From assembly GCA_902768985.1 (NCBI GenBank), contig CACXNA010000007.1, positions 62,001-126,000 of the forward strand: a stretch of 64,000 bases of DNA, written 5' to 3'. Within the stretch, counting starts at the first letter, position 1, and each line of letters opens with the position of its first letter. A program made the position numbers and the translations under genes. The notes under the pieces are model-generated. The model saw only the letters and a list, made by a program, of their open reading frames with translations. It made no database searches and was not told the DNA's origin. This document shows, piece after piece, positions 38,023 to 55,624 of the stretch. The stretch comes from an uncultured Bacteroidia bacterium (GTDB lineage: Bacteria; Bacteroidota; Bacteroidia; Bacteroidales; UBA932).

Positions 38023-39021
38023 TTAATAGCTGTCTACGGTCATCACGGTAAGCGGAGAGTAGAACACCGGGATACCGGAGACTTTCTGGCTGGCCTGGAC
38101 CGGAGAATTGGAGAGCAGGCCGTTCACGATCAGGCCCGTATTGTAGGCCATGTCCATCAGGTTCTTGTCGATGGTCATGGTCTGCAGGTGGCGCTTGATG
38201 TTGGACTGCGCCATGGCGGTATTGTCCTGGCCCGTGATGACCGGCATGTCCGTAATGCCCGCCAGACCCAGCGCCTCGATGACTCCCTGAGCCTGATTGT
38301 CGATGGCGGCAAGCACCATATCCGGGCGATCCCCTTCATTATAGAAGGTCAGACGGTCCTGCATTTCTATCTTGGCGTCGGAAATCATCCAACTGTCAGC
38401 ACTCACCTGACCGTATTCCGTCCTGTTGCTCACGACCTGCAGTTTCCCGCTGGCGATGTAAGGATTGAGCAGTTCCATCGCGCCGTCATAATAGGCCTTG
38501 GCGTTGATGTCGGTATCCGGGCCGGCGAGGATTTCGAGGGACATGACAGGCTCGCCGCAGGAATGGAAATGGTTGAGCAGGAACTGCGCCTGCAGACGCC
38601 CTACTTCCCGCGTGTTGGCGGAGGAGATATAAGCGACGCGGGGGTTGTCCAGGATAAAGCGGTCGTGGCATACCACCTTCACTTCGGGATGCTGCTCAAG
38701 CAGACCGGACTCGTTGATTTTCTTATAGTCGATGGCCGTCAGCACGACACACTTGGCGCCGGCATTGATGGCTTCCCGGAGCTGCTCCACCTGCTGGGCA
38801 GCACCCGCCTCCGTCTCCGGGGCGATGTAGAAAGTGGTGTTGAAGCCGTACGATGCCATCACCGTCTCGAGGTTAGACTTGTCTGTAGCCCAACGGTCAA
38901 GACTGGAAGCGTCGGGAAGCAGCACGGCTACTTTCTTCTGATTACCCTCTTTCGTGCAAGCAAGTGCCAGCAGCATCGCTGCGCCGAGGATCAAAGCTTT
39001 AGCAAAATAATTCTTTCTCAT
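38023..39021 (-). CDS. XylF-like sugar-binding lipoprotein, paralogue A
   Basis: A 332-residue lipoprotein (signal ending MLLALAC) with a type I periplasmic-binding fold close to D-xylose-binding XylF: AVLLPDASSLDRWATDKSN, VCHDRFILDNPRVAYISSA and GQDNTAMAQSNIKRHLQTMT. It is clearly homologous throughout to the product of 42134-43135. No ABC permease or ATPase accompanies either, so a sensing role or presentation of ligand to another envelope protein is more likely than transport (inference). It is separated from the AMP ligase gene by 80 bp of A+T-rich DNA that may carry an internal promoter. Confidence 0.88.
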   Translation of the reverse strand: MRKNYFAKALILGAAMLLALACTKEGNQKKVAVLLPDASSLDRWATDKSNLETVMASYGFNTTFYIAPETEAGAAQQVEQLREAINAGAKCVVLTAIDYKKINESGLLEQHPEVKVVCHDRFILDNPRVAYISSANTREVGRLQAQFLLNHFHSCGEPVMSLEILAGPDTDINAKAYYDGAMELLNPYIASGKLQVVSNRTEYGQVSADSWMISDAKIEMQDRLTFYNEGDRPDMVLAAIDNQAQGVIEALGLAGITDMPVITGQDNTAMAQSNIKRHLQTMTIDKNLMDMAYNTGLIVNGLLSNSPVQASQKVSGIPVFYSPLTVMTVDSY

Positions 39022-39086: not shown

Positions 39087-39102
39087 GTGGACGGCAGTCC
39101 AC
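39087..39102 (-). repeat. Small hairpin after the AMP-ligase gene
   Basis: GTGGAC-GGCA-GTCCAC immediately follows (and touches) the ligase stop codon on the minus strand. There is no T-run, so it may attenuate or stabilise the message within the array and not fully end it. Confidence 0.45.
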
Positions 39103-40757
39103 TAGCGCTTGTGGGGCTCGTAATAGCCGGTGAGGATGCGGGTGTAGTAATTCCGGTCGATTTTCCCGACCACATTGATGCGCAGATGCTCACGCTCGAT
39201 GCGGTATCTGTCTATGCGAAGCCCGGATGGAAGGAACGTCCGCATGGTACTGTCCAGTCGGCAGAAGACTTCTTCTTCTGTTTCCCGGATGCCGTCTTCC
39301 AATACAACGTGCGCCGCCAGCGGACTGTTTTCTGCAGCCAACGGGCACACCAGGGCCTCTTTGACGGCAGGGTCTTCCCGCAGCCGGTTGGCGATGTCGA
39401 ACAGATAAACCTTTTCTCCGCCGGGCGCAGCCACGAACTGATTCATCCGGCCATACACGAAGAGTTTACCGCTGTCATCCATCTCTCCAATGTCCTGGGT
39501 ACGGAGCCAGCCGCCTTGCAGCCTGTCCCGGTTCATCTGAGGATTGTTGATATAGCCGATGGTCAGGGACTGGGTCTTCACCCAGATTTCTCCGCGTTGA
39601 TTGGGCCCCAGTTCTTGGCCGTCTACGTCAAAAATGCCCACCGTGACGCCGGGGAAAGGAGCGCCCACACATATGACGGGGCGGGAATAATCTTTTTCGA
39701 AACCTGCGGGCGCATAGTCCACCGTGCATACGGAAAAAGTTTCACTGAGCCCGTAGCCCGAGGCAAGGGCCACACGACTGCCGCAGACTTCCAGAACATC
39801 ATTGATGTGGCGCAGCGCCTCGGGCGTACAGCCTTCGCCGCCCATAACGGGAAATCGGAAAAAACTCAGGTCGGGACGGTTCCCGCTTTGGACAAGCCGG
39901 TCTATATGACGGAAGAAGTACACCCAGAACCCGCCGGGAATCACGACAACCTGCGGTTTGAAAGCAAGGATGTTCTTGATCATCTGCCGGGCCGTTGCCC
40001 GCGGATCCACATACACCGTCATTCCGCGGAATAGAGGTGCCAGCACCTCTACGAACAAGCCGGTACACACAAAGGGCGGAAGATGCCAATAAGATTTTCT
40101 CCCTTCGAGGAAAGGCGTACCGCTTTGGTTAAATGCCAGCGCATTCCGGAACATGGCAATCATCGCCTCGTCACTCATCCCAATCTGGTTGGCGGCCCTT
40201 GCACCCGACGTTCCGGAAGAGCAGAAAATGAAGGCCGCTTTCCCCGGGACGGGCTCCGCTTCCAGAGGCCCGTCGCAGGACCCGAAACGCCGGATGGCGG
40301 CATCGGCCGTCATATATTTGGCCCGCAATCGCAGGCCGAATCGCACCAGACCCAGCAGCGGCGTAGCCGGGAGAAGGACCACGTGCCGGAATTGCTCCCG
40401 CCGGAGGGTTTGCCGTATCTTTTTCTCCATCCCGTCGAACACAAAGGCGACGCGGCTCCGGCCCACCATGGCATCCAACGCCTCCGGCGAGGCCATCAGG
40501 TTGGGGAGGTTGGCGGTGACGCCCGTCATATCGGCCGCCAGCATAATATATACGAATTCCGGCAAGGCCGGGCCGAAGATAAGCAGCTCGTCTCCCGGCT
40601 CCAGTCCCATTCCCCTGATGACGCGTCCCCAAAGCTGCACCCGCTCCACCAGCGTTTGGCGGCTGATCCTGCGGCCGAAATACACAAAAGCGTCGTGGCG
40701 GTTCCTGTCAGCCAGGATACCGCTCTCCATATATTTCCACAATGTTTGATCTTTCAT
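39102..40757 (-). CDS. AMP-forming acyl/aryl ligase-like protein
   Basis: A 551-residue member of the ANL superfamily (acyl-CoA synthetases, adenylation domains). The nucleotide loop is FCSSGTSGARA, the A5-like motif SGYGLSET, then GEIWVKTQSLTIGY, and a hinge/A8 region WLRTQDIGEMDDSGKLFVYGR. The N-terminus has no signal, so it is cytoplasmic. The catalytic C-terminal A10 lysine is expected in NVVGKIDRNYY. The substrate is unknown; no carrier protein or CoA-pathway gene is adjacent. It starts 3 bp after the alpha/beta hydrolase stop and is co-transcribed with it. Confidence 0.85.
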   Translation of the reverse strand: MKDQTLWKYMESGILADRNRHDAFVYFGRRISRQTLVERVQLWGRVIRGMGLEPGDELLIFGPALPEFVYIMLAADMTGVTANLPNLMASPEALDAMVGRSRVAFVFDGMEKKIRQTLRREQFRHVVLLPATPLLGLVRFGLRLRAKYMTADAAIRRFGSCDGPLEAEPVPGKAAFIFCSSGTSGARAANQIGMSDEAMIAMFRNALAFNQSGTPFLEGRKSYWHLPPFVCTGLFVEVLAPLFRGMTVYVDPRATARQMIKNILAFKPQVVVIPGGFWVYFFRHIDRLVQSGNRPDLSFFRFPVMGGEGCTPEALRHINDVLEVCGSRVALASGYGLSETFSVCTVDYAPAGFEKDYSRPVICVGAPFPGVTVGIFDVDGQELGPNQRGEIWVKTQSLTIGYINNPQMNRDRLQGGWLRTQDIGEMDDSGKLFVYGRMNQFVAAPGGEKVYLFDIANRLREDPAVKEALVCPLAAENSPLAAHVVLEDGIRETEEEVFCRLDSTMRTFLPSGLRIDRYRIEREHLRINVVGKIDRNYYTRILTGYYEPHKR

Positions 40758-42133: not shown

Positions 42134-43135
42134 CTAATAACTGTCGACGGTCTTCAGCGTGACCTTGGAGTAGAGCACCGGGATGCCGGAGATGCTCTGG
42201 CTGGTCTGGACCGGGGCGTTGGCGATGAGGCTGTTGATGATCATCGCGGTGTTGTAGGCCATATCCTGCAGGTTCTTGTCGATGGTCATGGCCTGCTTGC
42301 CGTGCTTTATGTTGGACATCGCCATGGCGGTATTGTCCTGGCCGGTGATGACCGGCATATCCGTAATGCCCGCCAGGCCCAGCGCCTCGATGGCGCCCTC
42401 GGCCAGGTTGTCATTGGCCGCAAGGATCATGTCCGGACGCTCGCCCGCCCCGTAGCTGGCCAGGCGATCCTGCATGGCCTTCTTGCCGTCGGCGATCAGC
42501 CAGCTGTCGGACTTCACCTGAGCGTACGTCGTCTTGCCGCTCTTGACCACCAGCTGACCACTGTCGATATACTTTTTGAGATAGTCGTAGGCGCCCTCAA
42601 AATAATCCTTGGCGTTGACGTCGTTCTCGGGACCCTCCAGGAACTCAATCGTCATGGAAGTGGCACCGGAAGCATGGAAATGGTTGAGCAGGAACAGCGC
42701 CTGCATCCGCCCGATCTCCTTCGTGTCGGTGGAAGAGATATAGGCAATGTTGGGATTGTCCAGCACAAAGCGGTCATGGCAGACGACCTTGACCTCGGGA
42801 TGCTTCGCAAGCAGCCCGGACTCGTTGATCTTCTTGTAGTCGATGGACGTCAGCACGATAAACCGCGCACCGACCTGGATGGCCTCGCGGAGCTGCTCCA
42901 CCTGCTGCGCCGCACCCGCCTCCGACTCCGGAGCCTCGTAGAACGTCGTATTGAAGCCATACTTGGCCATAACCGTCTCCAGGTTTGCCTTGTCGGTGGT
43001 CCAACGGTCGATAATGGAAGCATCAGGAAGCAGCACCGCCACTTTCTTCTCGTTGCTGTTGTCCTTGGTGCACGCCAGCGCCAGCAGCGCCACGGCGGTA
43101 AGGACGAAAACTTTAGCTAAACCATTCTTTTTCAT
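42134..43135 (-). CDS. XylF-like sugar-binding lipoprotein, paralogue B
   Basis: A 333-residue lipoprotein (signal ending ALLALAC), collinear and strongly similar to the product of 38023-39021 (AVLLPDASIIDRWTTDKAN, VCHDRFVLDNPNIAYISST, GQDNTAMAMSNIKHGKQAMT). The N-terminal binding-lobe segments and the C-terminal NDNLAEGAIEALGLAGI region match XylF-type proteins. The two paralogues bracket the hydrolase and ligase genes. They differ mainly in surface segments, so they may bind different ligands. Confidence 0.88.
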   Translation of the reverse strand: MKKNGLAKVFVLTAVALLALACTKDNSNEKKVAVLLPDASIIDRWTTDKANLETVMAKYGFNTTFYEAPESEAGAAQQVEQLREAIQVGARFIVLTSIDYKKINESGLLAKHPEVKVVCHDRFVLDNPNIAYISSTDTKEIGRMQALFLLNHFHASGATSMTIEFLEGPENDVNAKDYFEGAYDYLKKYIDSGQLVVKSGKTTYAQVKSDSWLIADGKKAMQDRLASYGAGERPDMILAANDNLAEGAIEALGLAGITDMPVITGQDNTAMAMSNIKHGKQAMTIDKNLQDMAYNTAMIINSLIANAPVQTSQSISGIPVLYSKVTLKTVDSY

Positions 43136-43156: not shown

Positions 43157-44719
43157 CTACAGTTTCTTATGGATAGACGTCCACTTGCCGGAGAGGATAT
43201 CGTTGGTATAGGAACCGCTGTACGAGATCATGAATTGGACGCCGGCAGCCTTATGGTAGTACGTTGTGGCCTTGGTGAGCAGATAAGAAGAATAATTCCT
43301 GCTCGCCGTATCCCACATCTCATGCACGGTCTCCAGGTTCGAGTAAGGAACCACCTCGTCCGTCTCCGAATGGAAGAAGGTGAGGCCGCCGCTCTGCGGA
43401 GGAAGCCATCCGTCCGCGCACAGGCTGTTCTCTTCCATGCACTGCTCGAAGGCGCGCACCTTTTCGGACGGGATATCGGAGGGAATCGTGCCGCTTCTGA
43501 AGTACTCCACAAGGGAAGGCTTGAGGCACATCTCGATGGGGACGTAGTTCATGCCGTTGCAGTTGCTCAGGTCCAGTTTCAGACTGGAGTTGCCGGCATT
43601 GTTTGCATTGTACGGGAGATATTCCCGCCGGCTTTCGGACCAGCAATACACTTTGAAGCCGCTGTTGCTGCTCTGGGAGATCGCCAGGAATTTCTTGTGG
43701 ATATCAGCGGTACTCATGGACATGTCCGCCAGCCAGTTGAAGATACCCGTTTGTACGAACTCGGGCGTGCAGAAATCATCATAAGTGCAACCCAGCGCCC
43801 TGAGACGGGGATTCGTATCCACCGCACCCTTCAGCAGGAGGGCGGCAGCGACGGGCATGAACAGTTTTCCGATCTCCACATACTTGCCCACCGTGGACAT
43901 CGGGTCGTACGGACCGTCCCCGCAAACGGCACCTGCCAGGCGAAGGCCGCTCTCACGGTTCTCCTGACAGTAACGATACACACCGGCCGCCACGGCGCCG
44001 CCCTGGGAATACCCCACGGCCACCGACTTCCAGTTGTCCGCCAGCTTCATCTTTTCCTTTTCATACCAGGCAATGCCGGCCTTCGCGCCGTCCACTACCT
44101 GCCGGGCGGTAGCCTCGCGGTTCAGATAGGGGTGGTTGCGGGATTTGGTGGCGCCGTAGCCCTCATAATCGGGAAGGATAACCAGGGCTTTCTGGCTCAG
44201 GGGATTGGCAAAACAGGCCAGCAGATTGGCATCACTGGTGATCCCCAGATTGGAGAAATTGCTGGGGCGTTCCGCATCGGAAGTGATGGTGAGATGGCAG
44301 CCGATCACCACATTGCCGGGCCGCTGTTCCGTGAAAGGGACATAAGGCCAGACCAGCAGTTCGGAGCACATGATCTCCTCGCCCGTCGCGCTGAGCGTCT
44401 TATAGCGAAGCGTAGTCCAGGCATAGGCCATCGTGGCGCTGGAACCGCTGTCCTCAGCCTTGGTCTGGCCACCTTGTGACTGCTTCAGCAGGTCGGAATA
44501 ATAGCCGTACAAAGACTCGTCATATTCCCCGTTGCGGGCCGTGGCATCCTGCAGGATTTTGGAGTAGAACTCCTCCAGCGGGATGGTGCCGGAATCCACG
44601 ACAGACACCTGAGAAAGGTCGTACAGGCCGTCGTCGTACGTCTCCGGGTCAGGAGTCTTCCCGCAGGACACGGCCAGAGCCAGGGAGATTATTGCCAAAA
44701 AGGGTAAAATCCGTTTCAT
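43157..44719 (-). CDS. Lipase-like alpha/beta hydrolase lipoprotein
   Basis: A 520-residue lipoprotein (signal MKRILPFLAIISLALAVSC). The hydrolase domain has an oxyanion/lid region VVIGCHLTI, DYEGYGATKSRNHPYLN, nucleophile GYSQGGAVAAG, acid HSETDEVVP and His in TYYHKAAGVQF, the layout of the secretory lipase (LIP) family. It acts outside the cytoplasm on an unknown ester or polymer. 12 bp separate it from the protease-fusion gene upstream and 21 bp from the binding protein downstream, indicating one operon. Confidence 0.82.
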   Translation of the reverse strand: MKRILPFLAIISLALAVSCGKTPDPETYDDGLYDLSQVSVVDSGTIPLEEFYSKILQDATARNGEYDESLYGYYSDLLKQSQGGQTKAEDSGSSATMAYAWTTLRYKTLSATGEEIMCSELLVWPYVPFTEQRPGNVVIGCHLTITSDAERPSNFSNLGITSDANLLACFANPLSQKALVILPDYEGYGATKSRNHPYLNREATARQVVDGAKAGIAWYEKEKMKLADNWKSVAVGYSQGGAVAAGVYRYCQENRESGLRLAGAVCGDGPYDPMSTVGKYVEIGKLFMPVAAALLLKGAVDTNPRLRALGCTYDDFCTPEFVQTGIFNWLADMSMSTADIHKKFLAISQSSNSGFKVYCWSESRREYLPYNANNAGNSSLKLDLSNCNGMNYVPIEMCLKPSLVEYFRSGTIPSDIPSEKVRAFEQCMEENSLCADGWLPPQSGGLTFFHSETDEVVPYSNLETVHEMWDTASRNYSSYLLTKATTYYHKAAGVQFMISYSGSYTNDILSGKWTSIHKKL

Positions 44720-44731
44720 CTTCTGTTAGTG

Positions 44732-46903
44732 TTAGTTCTTGATGGGTTCAAAAAATTCAGCCAGGGTACTGTAGTATACGTTACCGTACCACTCGTAATT
44801 GTAAATCATGGCGTGGCTGGCGGTGGTGTGGCGCGCCACCCTCGAGTACAGTTCGTAGAGGTTGATGTGGGGGTTCGCCTCCACTTCCTCGCGGAACACG
44901 CGCGTGAAGGCGTTGGAGAGGTAGATGTTGCCTTCCAGCACGTCCGCGTGCGAGGTCTCGCCGGGAGCGGCGGCGGTGAGCAGCAGCACGCCGGGGATGC
45001 CCGGCATGTCCTCGCCGACGGAGCCGCTGTAGCAAGTTTCCATCACGAAGAAAAGCTTGCGGAAGTTGTCCTGCGCGTTCTGCAGGATGCTGTGGATCTC
45101 GCCCGCCCAGATATAATCGTCCCCCCAGTTGATCTTCGTATTGTAGGTGCCGTGGCCGCTCCAGAACAGCACGACGTTGGTGTTCTTGCTGCCATGCACT
45201 ACCTGCGGTGTGCGCGCGGTGACGTTGCCTTTCAGGATGTTGCCGAAGTCCTCCGGCGTGAGCTCGCTGATCTTGTAGTCCACCTGGATGTTGGTGTGCA
45301 GGTTCTCCCCGTCGGGGGTCACGTGTACCACGCCCGGATGCGGGTTCTCGGGATTGTTTGCGATATCATCCTCAACAATCAGGACGATGTGGTCGTCGTC
45401 ATAGCCGGCGTTCTTGAGCATCCGGTAGAATTCCAGCGCATCCGCCTGGTGGCGGTAGTTGATCCAGCCGGTGGAGGTGGCCATCACCACGGCGCAGCGG
45501 TCGGTGAGCGGCTCGTAGGAGACGCCCTTGATGTTCTTGTCAAAATTCATCAGCTCGTCCGCCACGAAATCCCACATCTGGTCCATACTGCTCTTCCGCG
45601 CGTGGTCGCTGCGGGTCAGATAACCCGCCAGGTGGTACTGCCCGTCGTAATAACGCCAATGGCCGTACCAGGTGCCCAGCTGGCTGATGTGCGTCTCTCT
45701 GTCGAATATCCAGCTGCCGGACGCGCCGGACATGCTGGGAATGTGACCGTTACGGATGGACTGGAAGCCATGGCGGAGGCCGTCGGGCGTCCAGGATAAT
45801 TCGTCGGCGTCGCCGTCGCAGGCGTCCATCACGGCCACGATGGCCTCGCGGACCGTCTCCAGCTGCGCCGTCTCCTTGTGAGCGAGCGAGAGCGCCAGCA
45901 GGGTAAAGCTGTCGTAAAGTTGTGCATAGCCGTTCTGAATCTCGCGGCCCGTGACGGCTTTGCGGGTGGCGGGGAACCCGCTTTCAGGGTCACCGCAGAG
46001 GGCGATGCCCTGAAATTCGTGGGTCAATTTCCCTTCCAGCAGCGGATTGCAGCCGATGTCGGTACAGTAAATTTCGGGGAAGTAATCCTTGATGTTATGA
46101 AAGGAGCCCGCCTCCATGCCCAGGTTGATACCCTCTTCATCAAGCACTTCGTTCAGCATCAGCATATCCTCTACAGAAGAGGGGACAAATATGATGGTGG
46201 GAAGAACGAAGAAATACGAGGACATGCTGGCCTTGATCTGTCTGATGCAGGAGCGCAGGCTTTCCTTGTCTGTGAATATGGATTCCTTGTAGGATTCATA
46301 CCTCAACTCGGTGGTAAAGTATTTCGCATAGGAGGCAAAGGAGTAGACATAGTCGTCCGCGTCCCTGCCTCGCGACAGCATGATGATGTGGCCAGCCAGA
46401 AGCTGCTTCCGGAGGACGTTCAGCATGGCCTGGGTCTGGGCCAGGTCGCTCTCGCTCATGCAGAATATGTTGGGGGCGGTCCTGTTGCTGCCCCCGTAGA
46501 TGCGCTGGATCTCGGCCGAGGTGACGCTTGGCATGATGACCGGGATGCGGTAGCTCAGGCTTTCGCGGGCCAGCATCCGCGCGTGACGGCTGTACTTCGG
46601 TCCCACGATGGCGGCATAGGAGTCGTCATGGGTGATGCGATAGACTTCGTCCTCCAAATTGGCATCTTCCTCATCGATCCATTCCAGATCCAGCTTCACG
46701 CGCTGCTGGAGGCCCTCCTGGGCCTGATCGATGGTGGCGAGTGCCCCTTGCACCAGGAGCTTCTCGCTGTCCCACTGGGACTGGGGCATCACGACGGCCA
46801 CCTTGTAAGTGGTGGTCCCGCTCTGCGGCCCGGGCATTTCCTTGCCGCAGGCAAGCAGAATCAGGGAGGCTGCAAGCAGCCAGAAAAAACGGTCAATACG
46901 CAT
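44732..46903 (-). CDS. Lipoprotein fusing a ligand-binding domain to a legumain-like (C13) protease
   Basis: A 723-residue lipoprotein (MRIDRFFWLLAASLILLAC, lipidation Cys about 19). Residues about 30-440 form a type I periplasmic-binding fold of the Leu/Ile/Val receptor class (YKVAVVMPQSQWDSEKLLVQ; AAIVGPKYSRHARMLA; IPVIMPSVTSAEI). Residues about 520-723 match peptidase C13: ATSTGWINYRHQADALEFYR, DDIANNPENPHPGVV, catalytic His584 in FWSGHGTYN and Cys624 in METCYSGS, 40 residues apart as in legumain. The ATG at 46903 starts the signal; longer frames lack one. It overlaps the BMP-like gene by 11 bp. A ligand-gated periplasmic Asn/Asp-specific protease is the inferred role. Confidence 0.85.
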   Translation of the reverse strand: MRIDRFFWLLAASLILLACGKEMPGPQSGTTTYKVAVVMPQSQWDSEKLLVQGALATIDQAQEGLQQRVKLDLEWIDEEDANLEDEVYRITHDDSYAAIVGPKYSRHARMLARESLSYRIPVIMPSVTSAEIQRIYGGSNRTAPNIFCMSESDLAQTQAMLNVLRKQLLAGHIIMLSRGRDADDYVYSFASYAKYFTTELRYESYKESIFTDKESLRSCIRQIKASMSSYFFVLPTIIFVPSSVEDMLMLNEVLDEEGINLGMEAGSFHNIKDYFPEIYCTDIGCNPLLEGKLTHEFQGIALCGDPESGFPATRKAVTGREIQNGYAQLYDSFTLLALSLAHKETAQLETVREAIVAVMDACDGDADELSWTPDGLRHGFQSIRNGHIPSMSGASGSWIFDRETHISQLGTWYGHWRYYDGQYHLAGYLTRSDHARKSSMDQMWDFVADELMNFDKNIKGVSYEPLTDRCAVVMATSTGWINYRHQADALEFYRMLKNAGYDDDHIVLIVEDDIANNPENPHPGVVHVTPDGENLHTNIQVDYKISELTPEDFGNILKGNVTARTPQVVHGSKNTNVVLFWSGHGTYNTKINWGDDYIWAGEIHSILQNAQDNFRKLFFVMETCYSGSVGEDMPGIPGVLLLTAAAPGETSHADVLEGNIYLSNAFTRVFREEVEANPHINLYELYSRVARHTTASHAMIYNYEWYGNVYYSTLAEFFEPIKN

Positions 46904-47906
46904 ATTCGGCCTCCTTTTCCAAAGCTTTGTCCCTATATTGATTTTCCAGCGCAGTCCAGGCATCCAGCGATAACGTCCAATCATCGGTCTGACTTGCAAA
47001 AAGCTCAAAGAAACGATCGTTGAAGCTGATGTACACATGCCCCGTGGACATGCCGTAGTCTGCATGCGCCGGCCAGGGGCTGTTCTGCGCCCACCCGGAT
47101 ACGTATTCTTTCAAGATGCCTCCCAGATCCAGGATCAGGGAGAAGGGCAGGATGTCGGTATAAGAGCTGCCGTCATCCCCGACGCCAATGGTAGCAAAAT
47201 ACCTCCAGGAGAAATCGAATGCACCCAGGCGGGAGGTCCCGCACACCGGGGCGATGATGCCGTCGGCGTAATAGAACAGCTCCACGACTTCCTGTTCCCA
47301 CAGGATGCTGTAAAGCCCGTCCGCCATATCCAGGCCATCATAGCCCGAGGAAAGGACGTATTTCTGCAAGCCCGCTCCCCCGTTCTCTTTGTAACCGTCC
47401 TCGAGGCCCTGGGAGATTTCGTCGATGATGCGGTCGCCGTCCAGGCCCTTGATGAGCAAAAGCTCGAAATCTTTCATGATGGCCCCGGCCAGCCAGGCGC
47501 CGCCGTAGCGTTTGAGCTGAGCCGTGGCAATGCGATCGCCGTAAGTCTTGTCGCTGTCCAGCAGCAGGATACGGCCCTTCTCAAGGCTAACCCCCTCTAC
47601 CAGCGACTCGAATTCCGGGCCGCAGAGGACCAGGGCCTTGCGGTCGTCGGCGCCGGAGAGCCACTCGTCAAACTGGCTGCGGGCCTCGGAGAGGTTGTCG
47701 GGCTTGAGCATGTGGATCGTCATGCCGGGCTGCGCCGACACAGTCTCCATCAATGCTTTGAGAATGGGCTCATTGTATCCGTCGCCGGCCAGACCGGTGG
47801 TCGTGGCGAAGATAATGGTCAAATCCTTGCCACCCTCTTCCTTGCGGCAAGCCAGGAAGAGGACGGACAGAAGGAGCAAAGTCACTATTTTAACGCCTTT
47901 CATCAT
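46893..47906 (-). CDS. BMP/PnrA-like substrate-binding lipoprotein
   Basis: A 337-residue lipoprotein (signal ending LLSVLFLAC). The fold reads as a type I binding protein of the basic membrane protein/PnrA class: IIFATTTGLAGDGYNEPILKAL, KALVLCGPEFES, IATAQLKRYGGAWLAGAIM, YYADGIIAPVCGTSR and GHVYISFNDRFFEL. PnrA proteins bind nucleosides, but ligand residues cannot be assigned here. No transporter genes are adjacent. It overlaps the following protease-fusion gene by 11 bp, so the two are translationally linked. Confidence 0.75.
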   Translation of the reverse strand: MMKGVKIVTLLLLSVLFLACRKEEGGKDLTIIFATTTGLAGDGYNEPILKALMETVSAQPGMTIHMLKPDNLSEARSQFDEWLSGADDRKALVLCGPEFESLVEGVSLEKGRILLLDSDKTYGDRIATAQLKRYGGAWLAGAIMKDFELLLIKGLDGDRIIDEISQGLEDGYKENGGAGLQKYVLSSGYDGLDMADGLYSILWEQEVVELFYYADGIIAPVCGTSRLGAFDFSWRYFATIGVGDDGSSYTDILPFSLILDLGGILKEYVSGWAQNSPWPAHADYGMSTGHVYISFNDRFFELFASQTDDWTLSLDAWTALENQYRDKALEKEAEYAY

Positions 47907-47921: not shown

Positions 47922-48833
47922 CTACCAGAATTTGATCTTGTCACCGTTCGGTTTGAAGCAATAGACGTGCGCCATTGCGCGATCACCCGGGGCGGTCCAA
48001 AACCAATCATCTTTTCCGGTTGCCAGATTCACATAATAATCCAGGACATAAGCTTTTTTATCTTTAGCCATGTACCAATCGTCAAGTCTTGGCCAGTTGT
48101 GCTGTTTCGCATAACCATTGACCAGGAGATCGTAGTTGGCATACAGGGCCTTGTGCACATTTTTCAGCGTCTTTACGCTGCTGCACTCATCGTCCGGATA
48201 ATCGTAAGGAGCATCCAATGTGATCATGATACCGCATTCGCTGGGCGACCAGGGACGGACCACCAGGAACTCTCCGCTGCCATAGCCAAGATTTTTCTCC
48301 ATGTACACGGCCGCACCGAGGTAATAGTCCCTTTCCAGGATCTCTTCGGCGGCGCCGGCGTTTTGCGGCCAGGTGCTCGTCAGGATGAAATGGACCGACG
48401 GGCTGACTTGTTTTGCCGCACCCGCCTGGAGGACCGGCTTGACGGTCATGGCGGCGATGGCGCCCAAGCCGGGATCCTCGGCGAACTCCGCCGTGGCCTC
48501 CGGCTTGTTTTCCCCGTCGGTCATCGTCCAGATCAGGGTCTTTCCGCTGGTCGTGACCTGCGCATCGTCCGGGAGAAGATCGCGGAAAATTGCGGCCGCC
48601 TCTTCGTAATTGTTCACGGGGACGGAAATCTCCCACGGGTTGGCTTCATTGAGGCAGTCGCCGATCATGTAGCCGGTGATGTTCCCGGCATCGTCGGTCC
48701 GCACCAGGCCGTCAATCAGATACTGCAGGTCGCTCATCTTGCCGGAAGCCTCGTCCGGCTGGCCCTGCTTGTTGCACGCACAGGCCACCAGGATCATGGC
48801 GGCGATGGAGAGATACGATACTAATTGCTTCAT
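47922..48833 (-). CDS. Unrecognised lipoprotein, first gene of the array
   Basis: A 303-residue lipoprotein (MKQLVSYLSIAAMILVACAC). The mature part is acidic and Trp/Tyr-rich (WPQNAGAAEEILERDYYLGA, LVVRPWSPSECGIMITLDAP, KNVHKALYANYDLL) with no motif I recognise. It starts the run of closely spaced minus-strand genes down to 35.3 kb and is 15 bp upstream of the BMP-like gene. A 253-bp gap separates it from the AraC gene. Confidence 0.7.
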   Translation of the reverse strand: MKQLVSYLSIAAMILVACACNKQGQPDEASGKMSDLQYLIDGLVRTDDAGNITGYMIGDCLNEANPWEISVPVNNYEEAAAIFRDLLPDDAQVTTSGKTLIWTMTDGENKPEATAEFAEDPGLGAIAAMTVKPVLQAGAAKQVSPSVHFILTSTWPQNAGAAEEILERDYYLGAAVYMEKNLGYGSGEFLVVRPWSPSECGIMITLDAPYDYPDDECSSVKTLKNVHKALYANYDLLVNGYAKQHNWPRLDDWYMAKDKKAYVLDYYVNLATGKDDWFWTAPGDRAMAHVYCFKPNGDKIKFW

Positions 48834-49086: not shown

Positions 49087-50226
49087 TCAATTTTTCACCC
49101 ACTCCTTGGGCGACTGGCCGGTGATGGTCATAAACGTGCGGCTGAATACGGAAGGTGACGAAAAGCCGCAATTAGATGAAACCTCGGCCATTTTCATCCC
49201 GGGATGCTCGCTCATCACGCGCTTGGCCTCCTCTACTCGGTAGCGGTTCACGAAAACATAAAAACTGCAGTCGTATTCCGCATGGATAAACTGCGAAAGG
49301 TAGGTGCGGTTCATGGGCAGCACCTTCTGCAGGTCCACGAGCTTGAAGTCCGGATTCCGATAAGGCTTCTCCTGCTCCATCCACGCTTCCAGCGCCTGGC
49401 GGTACGCCTCGTTGGACTGCGGCGGAAGATCCTCCTTGGGGGCGGCGTCTTTGGCCGCCTGCTTCACCTGCTCCCACGGGTCCGGGCGGAACAGGATCAG
49501 GTCCGTGCCGTAAGCCAGGGCGAAGATGACCAGCCACTGCTGCGTGAACCCTCGCGCATGGTCATGGGAAACACACATATAGAAGTAGACCAGGCCAACC
49601 AGGACTCCGACGCACATGAAGCGGAGGATACTCTTCTCGTCCACATCCTCCAGGGAGGAGAAATTGTCCTCGCACCAGAGCCGGTACTCCCGCACATGCG
49701 TAAACAGCAGGATCAGCAGGAAAACCGGATACAGACCCACCAGGACCCGCAGGCTGAAAGGGAGAAGATAGTCCAACCCGACCAGGGCGAAGATGGGCAG
49801 GACCTGAATCAGGGCGCGACGGACATTCAGCCACCCCGGACGGAGCGCCTCCGTGGGGAACAGCAGCAGAGACCAGCCCAGCAGATTGCCCAGCGCAATC
49901 TCCATCGTCGAGAGCTCGTAGGCGCCCATATTCATCACGGGCTTCCCCATGAACAGCCAGGAGATGACATAAAAACCATCCAGAACGGCCCAAAGAATAA
50001 GCATCCAGCCCCAGATCCGCCGCATGCGGTATCCCTCCGTATGCCGGAAAGTGATCCAGGCACAGCACAGGGCGACGGCGGTGGTGGCCGACACGAGAAT
50101 CGGCGTGACGGCACTGTCGAAATACGCCTCCGGAATATACCGCGACACCCAAACGCTCAGCGCCACCACAGCAAACAGCAGGGCGCCAAAGCGAATCTCG
50201 CTCGTATAATGGTTTATGGAGGACAT
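49087..50226 (-). CDS. Membrane-embedded AraC-family transcriptional regulator
   Basis: A 379-residue protein with about seven hydrophobic helices in the first 240 residues (FGALLFAVVALSVWV, ILVSATTAVALCCAW, WMLILWAVLDGFYVISW and others), then a linker and a C-terminal AraC DNA-binding domain (about 275-379, LQKVLPMNRTYLSQFIHAEY and MAEVSSNCGFSSPSVFSRTF). This architecture couples a membrane sensor directly to DNA binding without phosphorelay. It lies directly upstream of the lipoprotein/protease array on the same strand and is the best candidate for its regulator (inference). Confidence 0.85.
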   Translation of the reverse strand: MSSINHYTSEIRFGALLFAVVALSVWVSRYIPEAYFDSAVTPILVSATTAVALCCAWITFRHTEGYRMRRIWGWMLILWAVLDGFYVISWLFMGKPVMNMGAYELSTMEIALGNLLGWSLLLFPTEALRPGWLNVRRALIQVLPIFALVGLDYLLPFSLRVLVGLYPVFLLILLFTHVREYRLWCEDNFSSLEDVDEKSILRFMCVGVLVGLVYFYMCVSHDHARGFTQQWLVIFALAYGTDLILFRPDPWEQVKQAAKDAAPKEDLPPQSNEAYRQALEAWMEQEKPYRNPDFKLVDLQKVLPMNRTYLSQFIHAEYDCSFYVFVNRYRVEEAKRVMSEHPGMKMAEVSSNCGFSSPSVFSRTFMTITGQSPKEWVKN

Positions 50227-52325: not shown

Positions 52326-52736
52326 ATGAAACCCAACCGCAAAAGATCCATCATCTTCACGATCGCGATGGTCCTCTACCTCGCGGTCGTCGGCTACCTG
52401 CTCTTCGCCAACTTCGAGAAGCTCTCGAGCGTGCCGAAGATCTTCCTCGGCATCCCGACCGACAAGATCGTCCACTTCTGCATGTTCTTCCCCTTCCCGA
52501 TCCTCGCCTACCTGGCCTACGACAAGTACACGGACACGCCCCTCAAGGCCCTGGCCGCGCTGGTGAGCATCTGCGCCATCGGCGCCATCTTCGCCGGCCT
52601 CACCGAGATCGGGCAGAGTCTGCTCCCCTACCGCTACGAGGACATCAGCGACTTCCGCGCCGACTGCCTGGCGATCGTCCTCGCCGGCATCCTGACCTTC
52701 ATCATCGACGTCTCCAAAATGCGCCGCGCGTCATGA
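52326..52736 (+). CDS. VanZ-family membrane protein
   Basis: A 136-residue integral membrane protein with four predicted helices (for example SIIFTIAMVLYLAVVGYLLF, KALAALVSICAIGAIFAGL) and VanZ-like features: TDKIVHFCMFFPF near the N-terminus and GLTEIGQSLLPYRYEDISDF with DCLAIVLAG later. VanZ was named for teicoplanin resistance, but most relatives are of unknown function. The ATG immediately follows the exporter stop codon; the next gene overlaps by 4 bp. Confidence 0.82.
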   Translation: MKPNRKRSIIFTIAMVLYLAVVGYLLFANFEKLSSVPKIFLGIPTDKIVHFCMFFPFPILAYLAYDKYTDTPLKALAALVSICAIGAIFAGLTEIGQSLLPYRYEDISDFRADCLAIVLAGILTFIIDVSKMRRAS

Positions 52737-55624
52737 GAACGCGCCGGCTCATCCTCCTGCTCGCGGGCCTGCTCGCCGTGCTCCCCGCAGGGGCCCAGGC
52801 GCCGCGCGCCCGCGACTTCCGCACCATCTGCGACACCCTCCAGGCCCGGCTCAAGCGCCGCACCACCGTCGACTACCGCCTCTCCGTGAGCCGCGTGACG
52901 GTCAGCGGCAAGAAGCTCAACCTGACCTTCAACAACAACCTCTCCTACTTCCCCTGGCACGAAAACGATGTCACCTGGTTCCGCGCCGAGCTGGAGAAAG
53001 AATGGAAATGGAAGGACTACGGCCTCGGCCTCATCCAGACCAACCGCTACGAGCTCGGCGAGCTCGCCACGCCCGTGCTGGGCTCCGACGGCAACCCCTC
53101 CGCCGACTACTCCTTTAAGATAAAAGACCCCCGCCAGACGCAGGCGCGCTTCATCGAGCGCACCGGCGCGCGCCGCTGGCTCAAGGGCCTCAACGACCGC
53201 TACATCGTGCTCTGGCAGAGCCACGGCCGCTACTACGACGAGGAGCAGGACGCCTGGATCTGGCAGCGCGCCCCCATCCACCGCACCGTCGAAGACATGT
53301 ACACGCAGACCTACGTCCTCCCCTTCCTCATCCCGATGCTGGAGAACGCAGGCGCCTACGTGATGACCCCGCGCGAGCGGGACACCCAGACCCGGGAAAT
53401 CATCGCCGACAACGACCCGGCCTTCCCCGGCCCCCGCGAGGGGCAGATGCGCACCCGCGGACGCTACCAGGAGCAGGGCGAATGGGCCCTCGCGGGCGAA
53501 GGCTTCGCCGACGCGAAGCCCGTCTACACCTTCGCCGACCGCCCATTCAGCGCCGGCACCGCCCGCATGGCGGACTGCTCCGGCGCCACGGCGACGGCCA
53601 GCGCCACCTGGATCCCCGACATAAGGGAGCGCGGCCGCTACGCGGTCTACATCTCCTATAAAACCCTCCCCAACAGCTGCACGGAGGCGCACTACACCGT
53701 CCACCACCTCGGCGGGCGGACGGAGTTCACCGTCAACCAGCGCCGCGGCGGCGGCACCTGGATCTACCTCGGCACCTTCGAATTCGCCGAAGGTGCCGAA
53801 GGGCGCGTGGTGCTCGACAACCGCGGCGGCTCGGGCTACGCGGTCAGCGCCGACGCCGTCAAATTCGGCGGCGGCATGGGCAAGCTCGAGCGCGGCGGCC
53901 GGATCTCCGGCATGCCGGCATTCGCCGAAGGCGCCCACTACTGGCTGCAGTGGGCCGGCGCGGACAGCACGGTCACGCGCGCCTGGGAGACCGACTACAC
54001 CTGCGACTACTCCGCCCGCGGCGCCTGGACGCGCTGGATGCACGAGGAGAAGGACATCCCCGTCGACCTCGCGTTCGCCTTCCACACCGACGCCGGGCTC
54101 ACGCCCAACGACAGCACCGTCGGCACGCTGGCCATCTACACGCTGCGCGACGACGACGGCAAACGCAAGTTCGCCGACGGCCGCGACCGCGTGGTCAGCC
54201 GCGTCCTCGCCGACTACGTCCAGTCGCAGGTCGTCCAGGACCTGCGCCTCGACTACGACCCTGACTGGTCGCGCCGCGGCACCTGGGACCGCAACTACAA
54301 CGAGCCCCGCACCCCGGGCGTCCCGGCCATGATCCTGGAGCTGCTCAGCCACCAGAATTTCGCCGACATGAAATACGGCCTCGACCCGTCCTTCCGTCTC
54401 ACGGTGTGCCGGGCCGTCTATAAAGGTATCCTCAAATCCCTCAGCGAATTATACCACACGCCCTACGTGGTGCAGCCCCTGCCGCCGCGCGCCTTCTCGG
54501 TCCGCCTGCAGGACAGCGGCCACGCGCGGCTGGAGTGGCAGCCCACGCCCGACCCCAAGGAGCCCACGGCCACGGCCGACGGCTACCTCGTCTACACCCG
54601 CATCGACAACGGCGGCTGGGACGCGGGCGTCGAGTGCGCCGAGCCCGTGCTGACGCTCGACATCGAGCCCGGCCACATCTACAGCTACAAAGTCGAAGCC
54701 TTCAACGCCGGCGGCAAGAGCTTCCCGTCCGAGGTCCTCTCGGTCGGCGCGCCCGTCGGGACGAAGCGCGCCCCCGTGCTGATCGTCAACAACTTCGACC
54801 GCATCTCCGCCCCGGCGTGGGTGGAGAGCCCGGGCTACGCCGGCTTCGAGAGCCGGATCGACACGGGCGTACCTTATATGAATGAGATCGGCTACATCGG
54901 CGAGAACTACGAATTCCGCCGCTCCGCGCAGTTCGTGGACAACGAGTACCCCGGCTTCGGCGCCTCCTTCGACGACCAGGCGGGCCTCGTCTTCGCCGGC
55001 AACACCTTCGACTATCCCTACCGCCACGGCGTGCACCTGATGCGCCTGGGCTACCCCTTCTATTCGATGTCCCGCGACGCCTTCACGGCAAATGAGGTCC
55101 CGGCCTACGTCATCGACCTCATCTGCGGCAAGCAGGGCCGCACGCCCGTCGGGCGCGGCGCGGTGCCGGAGCGCTTCGCCGTCTGGCCGGAAGCGCTCCA
55201 GGCCGCCCTGCGCCGCCAGGTCGATGCCGGCGCGCGCCTGCTCGTCAGCGGCGCCAACATCGCCTCCGACTCGCCGGACGACGCCGTCTTCCTCGAGCAG
55301 CTGCTCGGCATCCAGCTCGCCAACCCCTTCGGCACCAACAGCGGCGAGATGGCCGGCATGCCCTTCAGCAAGAATATGAACGCGGAAATCTACTGCGTGG
55401 AGCGCCCCGACGGGCTCAAGGCCGTCGGGAAAGGCGCCAAAGTCTGGCTCACCTACCCCGGGCGGCAGTACGCCGCCGCGGTGATCAACCAGGGTGAAAA
55501 CGCCAGCAGCGTCGCCATCGGCGTGCCGATCGAAACGCTGCTGCATGCCGCCGACCGGGAATGGATCCTCCGGGAGGCGCTTGACTATCTCTATAACGGG
55601 AAGAAACCGGCGACTAGAAGATAG
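52733..55624 (+). CDS. Large secreted N-acetylmuramoyl-L-alanine amidase-like protein with golvesin-type and Fn3 domains
   Basis: A 963-residue protein with a Sec signal (LILLLAGLLAVLPAGAQA). Amidase_3-like landmarks are spread around an inserted domain: VLWQSHGRYYDEE (first His), FAFHTDAGLTPND (second His) and GVPAMILELLSHQNFADM (Glu). The insert (about 255-385, TFADRPFSAGTARMADCSGA to VSADAVKFGG) resembles the golvesin C-terminal/xanthan-lyase CBD. A fibronectin III-like domain (about 590-670, RAFSVRLQDSGHARLEW) and a further globular region follow. It probably cleaves peptidoglycan side bridges or binds polysaccharide. It overlaps vanZ by 4 bp (ATGA). Confidence 0.75.
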   Translation: MRTRRLILLLAGLLAVLPAGAQAPRARDFRTICDTLQARLKRRTTVDYRLSVSRVTVSGKKLNLTFNNNLSYFPWHENDVTWFRAELEKEWKWKDYGLGLIQTNRYELGELATPVLGSDGNPSADYSFKIKDPRQTQARFIERTGARRWLKGLNDRYIVLWQSHGRYYDEEQDAWIWQRAPIHRTVEDMYTQTYVLPFLIPMLENAGAYVMTPRERDTQTREIIADNDPAFPGPREGQMRTRGRYQEQGEWALAGEGFADAKPVYTFADRPFSAGTARMADCSGATATASATWIPDIRERGRYAVYISYKTLPNSCTEAHYTVHHLGGRTEFTVNQRRGGGTWIYLGTFEFAEGAEGRVVLDNRGGSGYAVSADAVKFGGGMGKLERGGRISGMPAFAEGAHYWLQWAGADSTVTRAWETDYTCDYSARGAWTRWMHEEKDIPVDLAFAFHTDAGLTPNDSTVGTLAIYTLRDDDGKRKFADGRDRVVSRVLADYVQSQVVQDLRLDYDPDWSRRGTWDRNYNEPRTPGVPAMILELLSHQNFADMKYGLDPSFRLTVCRAVYKGILKSLSELYHTPYVVQPLPPRAFSVRLQDSGHARLEWQPTPDPKEPTATADGYLVYTRIDNGGWDAGVECAEPVLTLDIEPGHIYSYKVEAFNAGGKSFPSEVLSVGAPVGTKRAPVLIVNNFDRISAPAWVESPGYAGFESRIDTGVPYMNEIGYIGENYEFRRSAQFVDNEYPGFGASFDDQAGLVFAGNTFDYPYRHGVHLMRLGYPFYSMSRDAFTANEVPAYVIDLICGKQGRTPVGRGAVPERFAVWPEALQAALRRQVDAGARLLVSGANIASDSPDDAVFLEQLLGIQLANPFGTNSGEMAGMPFSKNMNAEIYCVERPDGLKAVGKGAKVWLTYPGRQYAAAVINQGENASSVAIGVPIETLLHAADREWILREALDYLYNGKKPATRR

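What the first reader, a model, noticed from the sequence alone, without database searches (positions are those of the whole stretch)
44732..46903. Ligand-binding lipoprotein fused to a legumain-like caspase-fold protease
One reading frame joins a Leu/Ile/Val-receptor-type periplasmic binding domain (about residues 30-440) to a complete C13 legumain domain with His584 and Cys624 in their expected contexts. C13 proteases and type I binding proteins are established families; their fusion in one surface or periplasmic lipoprotein suggests a protease gated by a small ligand, or a receptor that transduces by proteolysis. I know of no described system with this layout.
Basis: partly seen in the sequence, partly recalled or inferred. 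Interest (0 to 1): 0.8.

Follow-up and report, generated by a model that had tools for sequence, protein, structure and literature searches.

The report
Surface lipoprotein joining sensor and protease
A gut and rumen bacterium encodes a lipoprotein in which an amino-acid-receptor-like domain is joined to a legumain-like protease; relatives encode it paired with a second receptor-like lipoprotein and often beside three perforin-like proteins, which suggests a bacterial weapon switched on by a small molecule.

Summary
Window 44732-46903, minus strand, is one intact 723-residue frame: lipoprotein signal, type I binding (Venus-flytrap) domain (about 29-431), linker, and C13 legumain domain (471-702) with His584 and Cys624. 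It is a family: 321 of 329 pattern-matched genome stretches encode relatives, and both catalytic residues are kept in 53 of 53. A BMP/PnrA-like second flytrap lipoprotein lies directly upstream of 72 of 76 fusions with a called upstream gene. And 34 of 81 fusions share a same-strand run with MACPF (perforin/complement-fold) lipoproteins, 22 of them with exactly three upstream. The window's assembly has no MACPF match; its run carries an unknown lipoprotein, a secretory-lipase-like lipoprotein and sugar-binding lipoproteins instead. Residues matching the amino-acid recognition motif of class C receptors are well conserved near the window's branch, less so in a divergent branch. I think it is an amino-acid-sensing receptor protease that processes co-encoded surface lipoproteins. 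Ligand, gating and substrate are inferred. Eight paper searches listed no description of this architecture.

The parts
44732..46903 (-). Fusion lipoprotein, 723 aa: signal peptide with lipobox (Cys19), type I binding (Venus-flytrap) domain about 29-431, linker about 440-466, C13 legumain domain 471-702 (His584, Cys624)
46893..47906 (-). Partner lipoprotein, 337 aa, BMP/PnrA-like type I binding protein; overlaps the start of the fusion gene by 11 bases
   Evidence: family profile: Lbp 7x0r E 1e-7, TmpC 2fqw E 6e-5; PF02608 in 7 of 31 members; the window copy itself has no Pfam match
47922..48833 (-). Lipoprotein of an unnamed superfamily (called LPX here), 303 aa, confident AlphaFold model but no match among solved structures at E<=0.001
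49087..50226 (-). AraC-family regulator, upstream gene on the same strand (253 bases before LPX); membrane part judged by eye from hydrophobic stretches
   Evidence: HTH_18 E 2.7e-16; an AraC-labelled gene at 17 of 80 loci, window included
43157..44719 (-). Secretory-lipase-like (LIP) lipoprotein, 520 aa, 12 bases downstream of the fusion; possible local effector or substrate (inference)
   Evidence: (PF03583 E 1.3e-8)
42134..43135 (-). ChvE-like sugar-binding lipoprotein, 333 aa
40761..42122 (-). 453 aa protein without a Pfam or NCBIfam match; GSSQG elbow suggests an alpha/beta hydrolase (by eye)
39102..40757 (-). AMP-binding (acyl-CoA-ligase-like) enzyme, 551 aa
   Evidence: PF00501 E 3e-41
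38023..39021 (-). Second ChvE-like sugar-binding lipoprotein, 332 aa
36366..37991 (-). SpoIIE-type phosphatase with a PDC/Cache-like sensor part, 541 aa, end of the same-strand run described
   Evidence: PF07228 E 7e-46; PF22673 E 3e-12

Best explanation
The protein is a lipid-anchored, probably surface-exposed receptor protease. Its N-terminal flytrap binds an alpha-amino acid or a close derivative; together with the BMP-like flytrap lipoprotein made from the gene before it, it forms a sensor that controls the legumain domain. When active, the legumain domain cleaves after Asn or Asp in co-encoded surface lipoproteins and so activates them: MACPF pore formers, often three, in many relatives; in the window the substrate would be the LPX lipoprotein and/or the secretory-lipase-like lipoprotein. 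SHOWN by computation: domains, catalytic residues, conservation of pocket positions near the window's branch, the partner gene, MACPF linkage in relatives. INFERRED: ligand class, gating, pairing of the two proteins, surface location, cleavage specificity, substrates, and use in antagonism.
For: Domains and catalytic residues. Legumain's S1 residues R44, H45, S216 (passages of PMC4357240) align with R484, H485, S651, kept in 53, 46 and 53 of 53. The five mGlu1 amino-acid-binding residues (S165, T188, D208, Y236, D318; passage of PMC2680970) map to S105, T128, D153, Y185, D282, kept in 45, 47, 53, 46 and 47 of 53, within the top 36 of 401 domain positions. BMP-like gene directly upstream in 72 of 76, and before each fusion in 7 of 7 loci that hold two. 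MACPF in the same run for 34 of 81 fusions; 22 of the 28 with MACPF upstream have exactly three; 56 of 72 labelled proteins match PF01823. In an even sample of 295 genomes of the order, the 5 MACPF matches found in the six strong-C13 carriers all lie within 7 kb of the fusion gene. Precedent: surface C11 proteases of the same clan activate CDCL pore formers (passages of PMC11169675).
Against: No ligand, activity or substrate was measured. The window assembly (95% complete) has no MACPF match, and 4 of the 6 strong-C13 genomes of the even sample have none, so MACPF is not the universal substrate. In the 20 fusions of the window's genus the motif is weaker: of 17 rows not gapped there, position 105 is Ser in 11 and Asn in 6, and position 282 is Asp in 6 of 19 (the second fusion of the same genome has Tyr; the alignment is gappy there); 128, 153 and 185 hold. 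The motif mapping rests on remote profile alignments and, for mGlu1, on reading by eye. Legumain's D231 is Asn in 52 of 53 but Asp in 9 of 20 genus rows. For BSAP-1, a known MACPF toxin, changing three possible C11 cut sites one at a time did not affect killing (PMC12853789 section 8), so proteolysis need not be how a MACPF toxin is armed. Surface export signals are only weakly indicated.
Confidence: 0.38

Rival explanations
1. The flytrap domain is not a sensor but a docking or scaffold module: it pairs with the BMP-like lipoprotein or a substrate, and the protease is always on or is activated by self-cleavage, as legumain is.
For: Type I binding folds often dimerise (family knowledge, recalled). 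The low-confidence stretch at 448-453 could be a cut site. The gene pair (72 of 76) fits a structural partner. Two of five pocket positions are not kept in many genus rows.
Against: In the 53-row set the pocket positions are among the best conserved of the domain, unexpected for a mere scaffold.
Confidence: 0.28
2. Signal transduction: the receptor protease cuts a membrane regulator such as the AraC protein or an anti-sigma factor, and so changes transcription of the locus.
For: An AraC-labelled gene lies at 17 of 80 loci, window included; the window run also holds a SpoIIE-type phosphatase with a sensor part.
Against: 63 of 80 loci show no AraC label in the DNA fetched, though many are short; the protease should lie outside the cytoplasm, away from an HTH.
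Confidence: 0.13
3. Nutrition: the locus senses or takes up peptides, sugars and lipids, and the protease digests external protein.
For: ChvE-like binding lipoproteins, a lipase-like lipoprotein and an acyl-CoA-ligase-like gene lie downstream in the window.
Against: No importer and no SusCD-like pair appears among the 15 window proteins scanned; the one transporter found is an exporter-type ABC protein on the other strand. In relatives the run often holds MACPF and other lipoproteins.
Confidence: 0.12
4. The C13 domain is a transamidase or ligase (like GPI transamidase or plant peptide ligases) that couples co-encoded lipoproteins to one another or to a surface acceptor.
For: GPI transamidase and plant peptide ligases are among the matches after legumain (E 4.7e-48 for GPI transamidase).
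Against: Animal legumain scores better; I saw nothing in the loci that suggests an acceptor.
Confidence: 0.06

Closest known systems
Legumain / peptidase family C13 (and GPI transamidase)
   Same: Fold, catalytic His/Cys, equivalents of Asn42, Arg44, His45, Ser216
   Different: The chain ends about 20 residues after the C13 domain, so no C-terminal LSAM-like domain; an N-terminal flytrap domain and lipid anchor instead; Asp231 is Asn in the window
Class C receptors and Venus kinase receptors (flytrap joined to an effector; passage of PMC2680970)
   Same: Flytrap with much of the five-residue amino-acid motif, joined to an enzyme as in Venus kinase receptors
   Different: The enzyme is a protease and, by inference, on the same side of the membrane; no transmembrane domain seen between the two
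C11 surface proteases (fragipain, DpnB) that activate CDCL toxins (passages of PMC11169675) and Fab1 (abstract of PMC8406203)
   Same: Clan CD cysteine protease lipoprotein of Bacteroidales acting on pore-forming or other toxins
   Different: C11 enzymes cut after Arg/Lys (PMC12853789); here C13, a fused flytrap domain, a dedicated partner, and frequent genetic linkage to MACPF genes
BSAP toxins (MACPF surface lipoproteins of Bacteroidales; passages and section 8 of PMC12853789)
   Same: MACPF domain and lipoprotein anchor
   Different: The BSAP-1 studied there kills through a receptor-binding C-terminal domain and did not need the three C11 sites tested; here often three different MACPF genes stand with a protease pair
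Caspase-like (clan CD) processing peptidases of polymorphic toxins (passages of PMC3482391)
   Same: Clan CD peptidase linked with toxins in bacteria
   Different: There the peptidase domain lies inside the toxin chain; here it is a separate lipoprotein with a flytrap domain
BMP/PnrA family (PF02608) binding lipoproteins
   Same: The partner family matches by profile
   Different: Gene overlaps a protease gene; no importer genes seen among the window neighbours scanned

Membership tests
Peptidase family C13 (PF01650) | Profile match over the catalytic domain | tested here: met
   E 2.2e-47, 471-702; 53 of 53 members
Peptidase family C13 (PF01650) | Catalytic His and Cys | tested here: met
   His584 and Cys624, 53 of 53 and 20 of 20 genus rows; aligned to legumain
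Peptidase family C13 (PF01650) | Zwitterionic S1 pocket R44, H45, S216, D231 | tested here: inconclusive
   R484 53/53, H485 46/53, S651 53/53, but the D231 position is Asn in 52/53; Asp in 9 of 20 genus rows
Peptidase family C13 (PF01650) | Asn/Asp endopeptidase activity | not testable with these tools
   needs an enzyme assay
Type I binding / ANF receptor (flytrap) domain | Profile match above the curated cut-off in the window protein itself | tested here: not met
   ANF_receptor 20.8 bits against 25.4, Peripla_BP_6 17.4 against 31.7
Type I binding / ANF receptor (flytrap) domain | Profile match across the family | tested here: met
   ANF_receptor in 42 of 53 members, best E 6e-15; family profile to 4gnr E 3.3e-12
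Type I binding / ANF receptor (flytrap) domain | Amino-acid recognition residues of class C flytraps | tested here: inconclusive
   S105, T128, D153, Y185, D282 kept in 45-53 of 53, but 105 and 282 vary in the genus set; mapping partly by eye
Type I binding / ANF receptor (flytrap) domain | Ligand binding | not testable with these tools
   needs a binding assay
MACPF (BSAP-like) toxin system | MACPF gene in the genome of the window | tested here: not met
   no PF01823 match in G000, 95% complete
MACPF (BSAP-like) toxin system | MACPF gene beside relatives of the fusion | tested here: met
   34 of 81 fusions; PF01823 in 56 of 72 labelled proteins
Protease-activated pore-former system (CDCL type) | Cleavage of the pore former by the protease | not testable with these tools
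   needs purified proteins
Known anti-phage systems (PADLOC) or phage families (PHROGs) | Model match at E<=0.01 | tested here: not met
   PADLOC none for 8 proteins; PHROGs for 5 proteins: only families of unknown function (fusion E 0.007, lipase-like E 8e-13)

The most novel reading that the evidence does not exclude
A bacterial analogue of complement: two flytrap lipoproteins sense an amino-acid cue at the cell surface, the fused legumain domain fires, and it converts a co-encoded set of three different MACPF lipoproteins into a mixed pore. In the window's lineage the pore formers have been exchanged for other lipoprotein effectors (unknown LPX, lipase-like). In the window's branch the Asn in place of legumain's Asp231 could let it cut after Asp at neutral pH, caspase-like.
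Probability: 0.24. Interest if true: 0.92.

Novelty: new variant of a known kind. Interest (0 to 1): 0.74.

Why it matters
If true it would be the first small-molecule-gated receptor protease of this build that I know of, and would give Bacteroidales pore formers a sensor-controlled activator encoded beside them. It makes an open question testable: how MACPF proteins of gut bacteria are kept harmless on their own surface and then armed. The gene set is present in named strains (Prevotella communis E15-14, Paraprevotella xylaniphila YIT 11841), so it can probably be worked on.

Tried and rejected
Two separate genes or a frameshift in the window: rejected, one open frame, and 81 full-length fusions (at least 650 aa) among the window and 79 fetched loci. 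Against this: in two loci the frame is split in two by my gene calls (L097 433+247 aa, L105 272+465 aa), three are short (L091, L095, L098), and one has no C13 gene called (L081). Chance or single-assembly artefact: rejected. MACPF in the window genome: sought, none. LPX or LP800 as hidden MACPF: profile-profile comparison aligned LP800 only over the signal and BACON-like part and LPX only over the signal peptide; no convincing solved-structure match for either profile (best E 0.037 and 0.39) and none at E<=0.001 for the LPX model. Plasmid carriage: no tblastn match. Defence or phage families.

Dropped from counts: nine MACPF-labelled proteins under 350 aa or under 50 bits were left out of the strict count, which fell from 36 of 81 to 34 of 81; three of them score 95 bits or more and are probably cut or split MACPF genes, so the strict count is low rather than high. 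Five fusions with no gene called upstream were left out of the 72 of 76; the four that fail are L082, L111, L112, L113. The 20 loci were hand-picked from 79 and lean towards MACPF; in their 19 genomes 42 of 50 MACPF matches lie within 15 kb of a C13 match on the same contig and 8 do not (G552 one, G553 four, G554 one, G561 two). The even sample is the fairer check. Several fetched loci are near-copies (for example L131/L136, L133/L134/L137, L122/L123, L140/L142), so counts are not independent events. Genes in relatives were called by my own script, not by an annotation pipeline. One search timed out and was repeated faster.

Full report
WHAT IS THERE. Window 44732-46903 on the minus strand is a single open frame of 723 residues. 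The start at 46903 gives a typical lipoprotein signal with a lipobox Cys at 19. Pfam places Peptidase_C13 at 471-702 (E 2.2e-47) and finds the binding domain only below its cut-offs in this sequence (ANF_receptor E 2e-4, Peripla_BP_6 E 0.004). A profile of 53 family members (A2) matches legumain (E 5.2e-58, positions 457-697) and branched-chain amino-acid binding proteins (4gnr E 3.3e-12 over 52-336, 3td9 E 7.3e-9), then taste and glutamate receptors. At E<=0.001, C13 is found in 53 of 53 members, ANF_receptor in 42 of 53, Peripla_BP_6 in 21 of 53. AlphaFold2 gives mean pLDDT 87.9 and pTM 0.79, with a weak stretch at 448-453 between the two halves. Foldseek's best match is human legumain (E 4e-20); the fifty rows shown are all C13-type, so the fold of the first half rests on the profiles, not on Foldseek.

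CATALYTIC AND BINDING SITES. Aligned with legumain, Asn42, Arg44, His45, His148, Glu187, Cys189, Ser216 and Asp231 correspond to N482, R484, H485, H584, E622, C624, S651 and N664 (R44, H45, S216, D231 are named in passages of PMC4357240; the other legumain numbers are recalled). The first seven are kept in 53, 53, 46, 53, 49, 53 and 53 of 53 rows, and N664 is Asn in 52 and Asp in 1. In the 20 genus rows of A1 the D231 place is Asn in 11 and Asp in 9, the second fusion of the same genome among the latter. The paper's passage says Asp231 is probably protonated when Asp is accepted at P1; an Asn there might allow Asp at neutral pH (inference). For the flytrap, alignments to 4gnr, 3td9 and T1R3, read with the mGlu1 motif S165, T188, D208, Y236, D318 (passage of PMC2680970), point to S105, T128, D153, Y185 and D282; these are kept in 45, 47, 53, 46 and 47 of 53 and rank 36, 28, 6, 33 and 26 among 401 positions. 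The step to mGlu1 numbers was made by eye. A2 was built from the best-scoring relatives; in A1, which holds the divergent branch, T128 is Thr in 16 of 17 ungapped rows, D153 and Y185 are kept in 17 of 17, but S105 is Ser in 11 and Asn in 6, and D282 is Asp in only 6 of 19, in a gappy part of the alignment. So an alpha-amino-acid ligand is suggested for the window's branch, not shown, and the divergent branch may bind something else.

HOW WIDESPREAD. In the window's genus, 20 of 151 genomes have a PF01650 match, 16 of them strong (20 genes, E<=1e-28). Those 20 genes were aligned (A1): three are cut by a contig end (L051, L052, L053); the other 17 align along most of the flytrap domain, one (L059) without a matching first part. 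In an even sample of 295 genomes of the order, 43 have any match and 6 (window genome included, 8 genes) strong ones. In 395 genomes of the phylum no genome other than the window's has a match better than E 2.3e-12. A scan of GTDB genomes with A1 gave 329 pattern matches, 321 of them relatives; of the best 79 loci (L064-L142) the titles name Bacteroidia, Bacteroidales or taxa within it, largely rumen and gut, and include Prevotella communis E15-14 and Paraprevotella xylaniphila YIT 11841.

A FIXED PARTNER. My gene calls on these loci plus the window give 81 fusions of at least 650 aa at 74 loci, window included. Directly upstream on the same strand lies a BMP-like lipoprotein in 67 of the 76 with an upstream gene called; five more unlabelled 350-397 aa genes in that place also match the BMP profile (weakest E 1.3e-7 in a five-sequence search), making 72 of 76. 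The commonest spacing is an 11-base overlap (18 of 67), as in the window. In 7 of 7 loci with two fusions, each has its own BMP-like gene before it. The partner family matches PnrA-type proteins (7x0r E 1e-7, 2fqw E 6e-5; PF02608 in 7 of 31 members). So the core unit is a pair of flytrap lipoproteins, one bearing the protease.

PORE FORMERS IN RELATIVES. Many loci carry lipoproteins of 420-930 aa whose sequences hold a MACPF-like signature. Pfam finds MACPF above cut-off in six of the 20 neighbours first scanned, and below it in one more, and at E<=0.001 in 56 of 72 labelled proteins, with a BACON domain in 26; 16 of 72 do not reach that limit. Their profile matches insect-active MACPF proteins (E 1e-22), perforin (6e-10) and complement C6 (1e-9). 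By strict criteria 34 of 81 fusions at 31 of 74 loci share a same-strand run with MACPF; in 28 cases MACPF is upstream, in 22 of these exactly three genes, and in 6 only one gene downstream. P. communis has a second fusion locus that I had not chosen for this: AraC-labelled genes, three MACPF, two LPX, BMP-like, fusion (L143). In the even order sample there are 27 MACPF matches in 20 genomes; only two of the six strong C13 carriers are among them, but in both every MACPF match (2 and 3) lies within 7 kb of the fusion gene, in the layout MACPF x3, BMP-like, fusion (L144, L145; the third MACPF of L144 is cut by the contig end and weak, 27.8 bits). The other loci of that sample have BMP-like plus fusion without MACPF (L146, L148, L149) or the fusion alone (L147). 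On a quick tree of the 81 fusions the looser MACPF label (36) is spread over most deep clades and needs 11 changes against 26.7 in shuffles; the window's clade of 20 has none (several long branches).

THE WINDOW LOCUS. The window assembly has no PF01823 match. Its run, in order of transcription, is AraC regulator, LPX lipoprotein, BMP-like, fusion, LIP lipase-like lipoprotein, ChvE-like lipoprotein, 453 aa protein, AMP-ligase, ChvE-like lipoprotein, SpoIIE-type phosphatase. LPX is a large lipoprotein superfamily that shares the run with 59 of 81 fusions. Its window member folds confidently (pLDDT 86.1) but matches no solved structure at E<=0.001. A further unknown family, LP800 (about 800 aa, with a BACON-like N-terminal part), is found in 14 of 81 runs.

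LOCATION. Among genes not cut at the 5' end, my lipobox rule fires in 67 of 84 C13-labelled, 63 of 67 BMP-like, 81 of 83 LPX and 72 of 78 MACPF-labelled proteins, against 85 of 448 others. Of those, 32 of 67, 41 of 63, 46 of 81 and 59 of 72 have two or more acidic residues at +2 to +7, against 30 of 85. That fits surface lipoproteins but does not prove it; BSAPs are described as surface lipoproteins with an export signal after the Cys (passages of PMC12853789).

HOW IT PROBABLY WORKS. I think the flytrap pair senses an amino-acid-like cue and unlocks the legumain domain, which then cuts neighbouring surface lipoproteins made from the same run. The nearest proven case is activation of CDCL pore formers by surface C11 proteases of the same clan (passages of PMC11169675), and of Fab1 by fragipain (abstract of PMC8406203); BcpT is another proteolytically activated toxin (abstract of PMC9308784). 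Against it, BSAP-1 kills without the three C11 sites tested, one at a time (PMC12853789 section 8). Small-ligand control of a clan CD protease has a precedent in the InsP6-activated MARTX domain (passage of PMC4357240). Ligand, gating, substrate and purpose remain inference.

IS IT KNOWN. Eight paper searches in the held open-access library listed nothing that I could recognise as a binding-domain-C13 fusion or as C13 beside MACPF; a ninth was for the motif. The library misses most subscription papers, and I saw only abstracts, passages or single sections of the papers cited. The words legumain, C13 and MACPF do not occur in the held text of the polymorphic-toxin survey PMC3482391, and C13 does not occur in PMC12853789 or PMC11169675. 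Each part belongs to a known family; the combination appears undescribed. I rate it a new variant of a known kind (protease-activated toxin systems of Bacteroidales), with a bolder reading in the section on the most novel reading.

Noticed in passing
G000:C2:208934-209701 (L063:15426-17741:+): A second, divergent PBP-C13 fusion (29% identical) in the same genome, also with a BMP-like lipoprotein directly upstream; it has Asp at the legumain D231 place and Tyr at position 282.
   Followed up: partly
L071-L075, L080, L083-L085, L088, L090, L124, L127, L130 (e.g. L072:12172-14571:+): LP800: an unknown family of about 800 aa lipoproteins with a BACON-like N-terminal part and, by eye, a Gly/Ala-rich hydrophobic middle, found beside the fusion in lineages that mostly lack MACPF there; could be another membrane-active protein.
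   Followed up: partly
L064:4943-8762:+: Four tandem LPX lipoproteins (65-95% identical to the window copy) just upstream of the BMP-like and fusion genes; such arrays look like immunity or variant-effector genes.
   Followed up: no
window 38023-39021 and 42134-43135, minus strand: Two ChvE-like sugar-binding lipoproteins with no importer genes among the neighbours scanned; role unclear.
   Followed up: no
window 36366-37991, minus strand: SpoIIE-type phosphatase with a PDC/Cache-like sensor part at the end of the run; a homologue lies just before the BMP-like gene in L065.
   Followed up: partly
window 52733-55624, plus strand: A 963 aa protein with Golvesin_C, fn3 and a weak Amidase_3 match; possibly a peptidoglycan amidase of unusual make-up.
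   Followed up: no
L097 and L105: The fusion reads as two frames in these two loci (433+247 and 272+465 aa): decayed genes or assembly errors.
   Followed up: no
G552:C24:25205-25483: A MACPF match interrupted by a stop codon, on a contig where no C13 match was found.
   Followed up: no
L143, L136, L093 and similar loci: MACPF genes often come as three different paralogues; one of them often lacks the His of the YGTH signature (for example YGPVVVTG..GG), which suggests a mixed, multi-component pore.
   Followed up: partly
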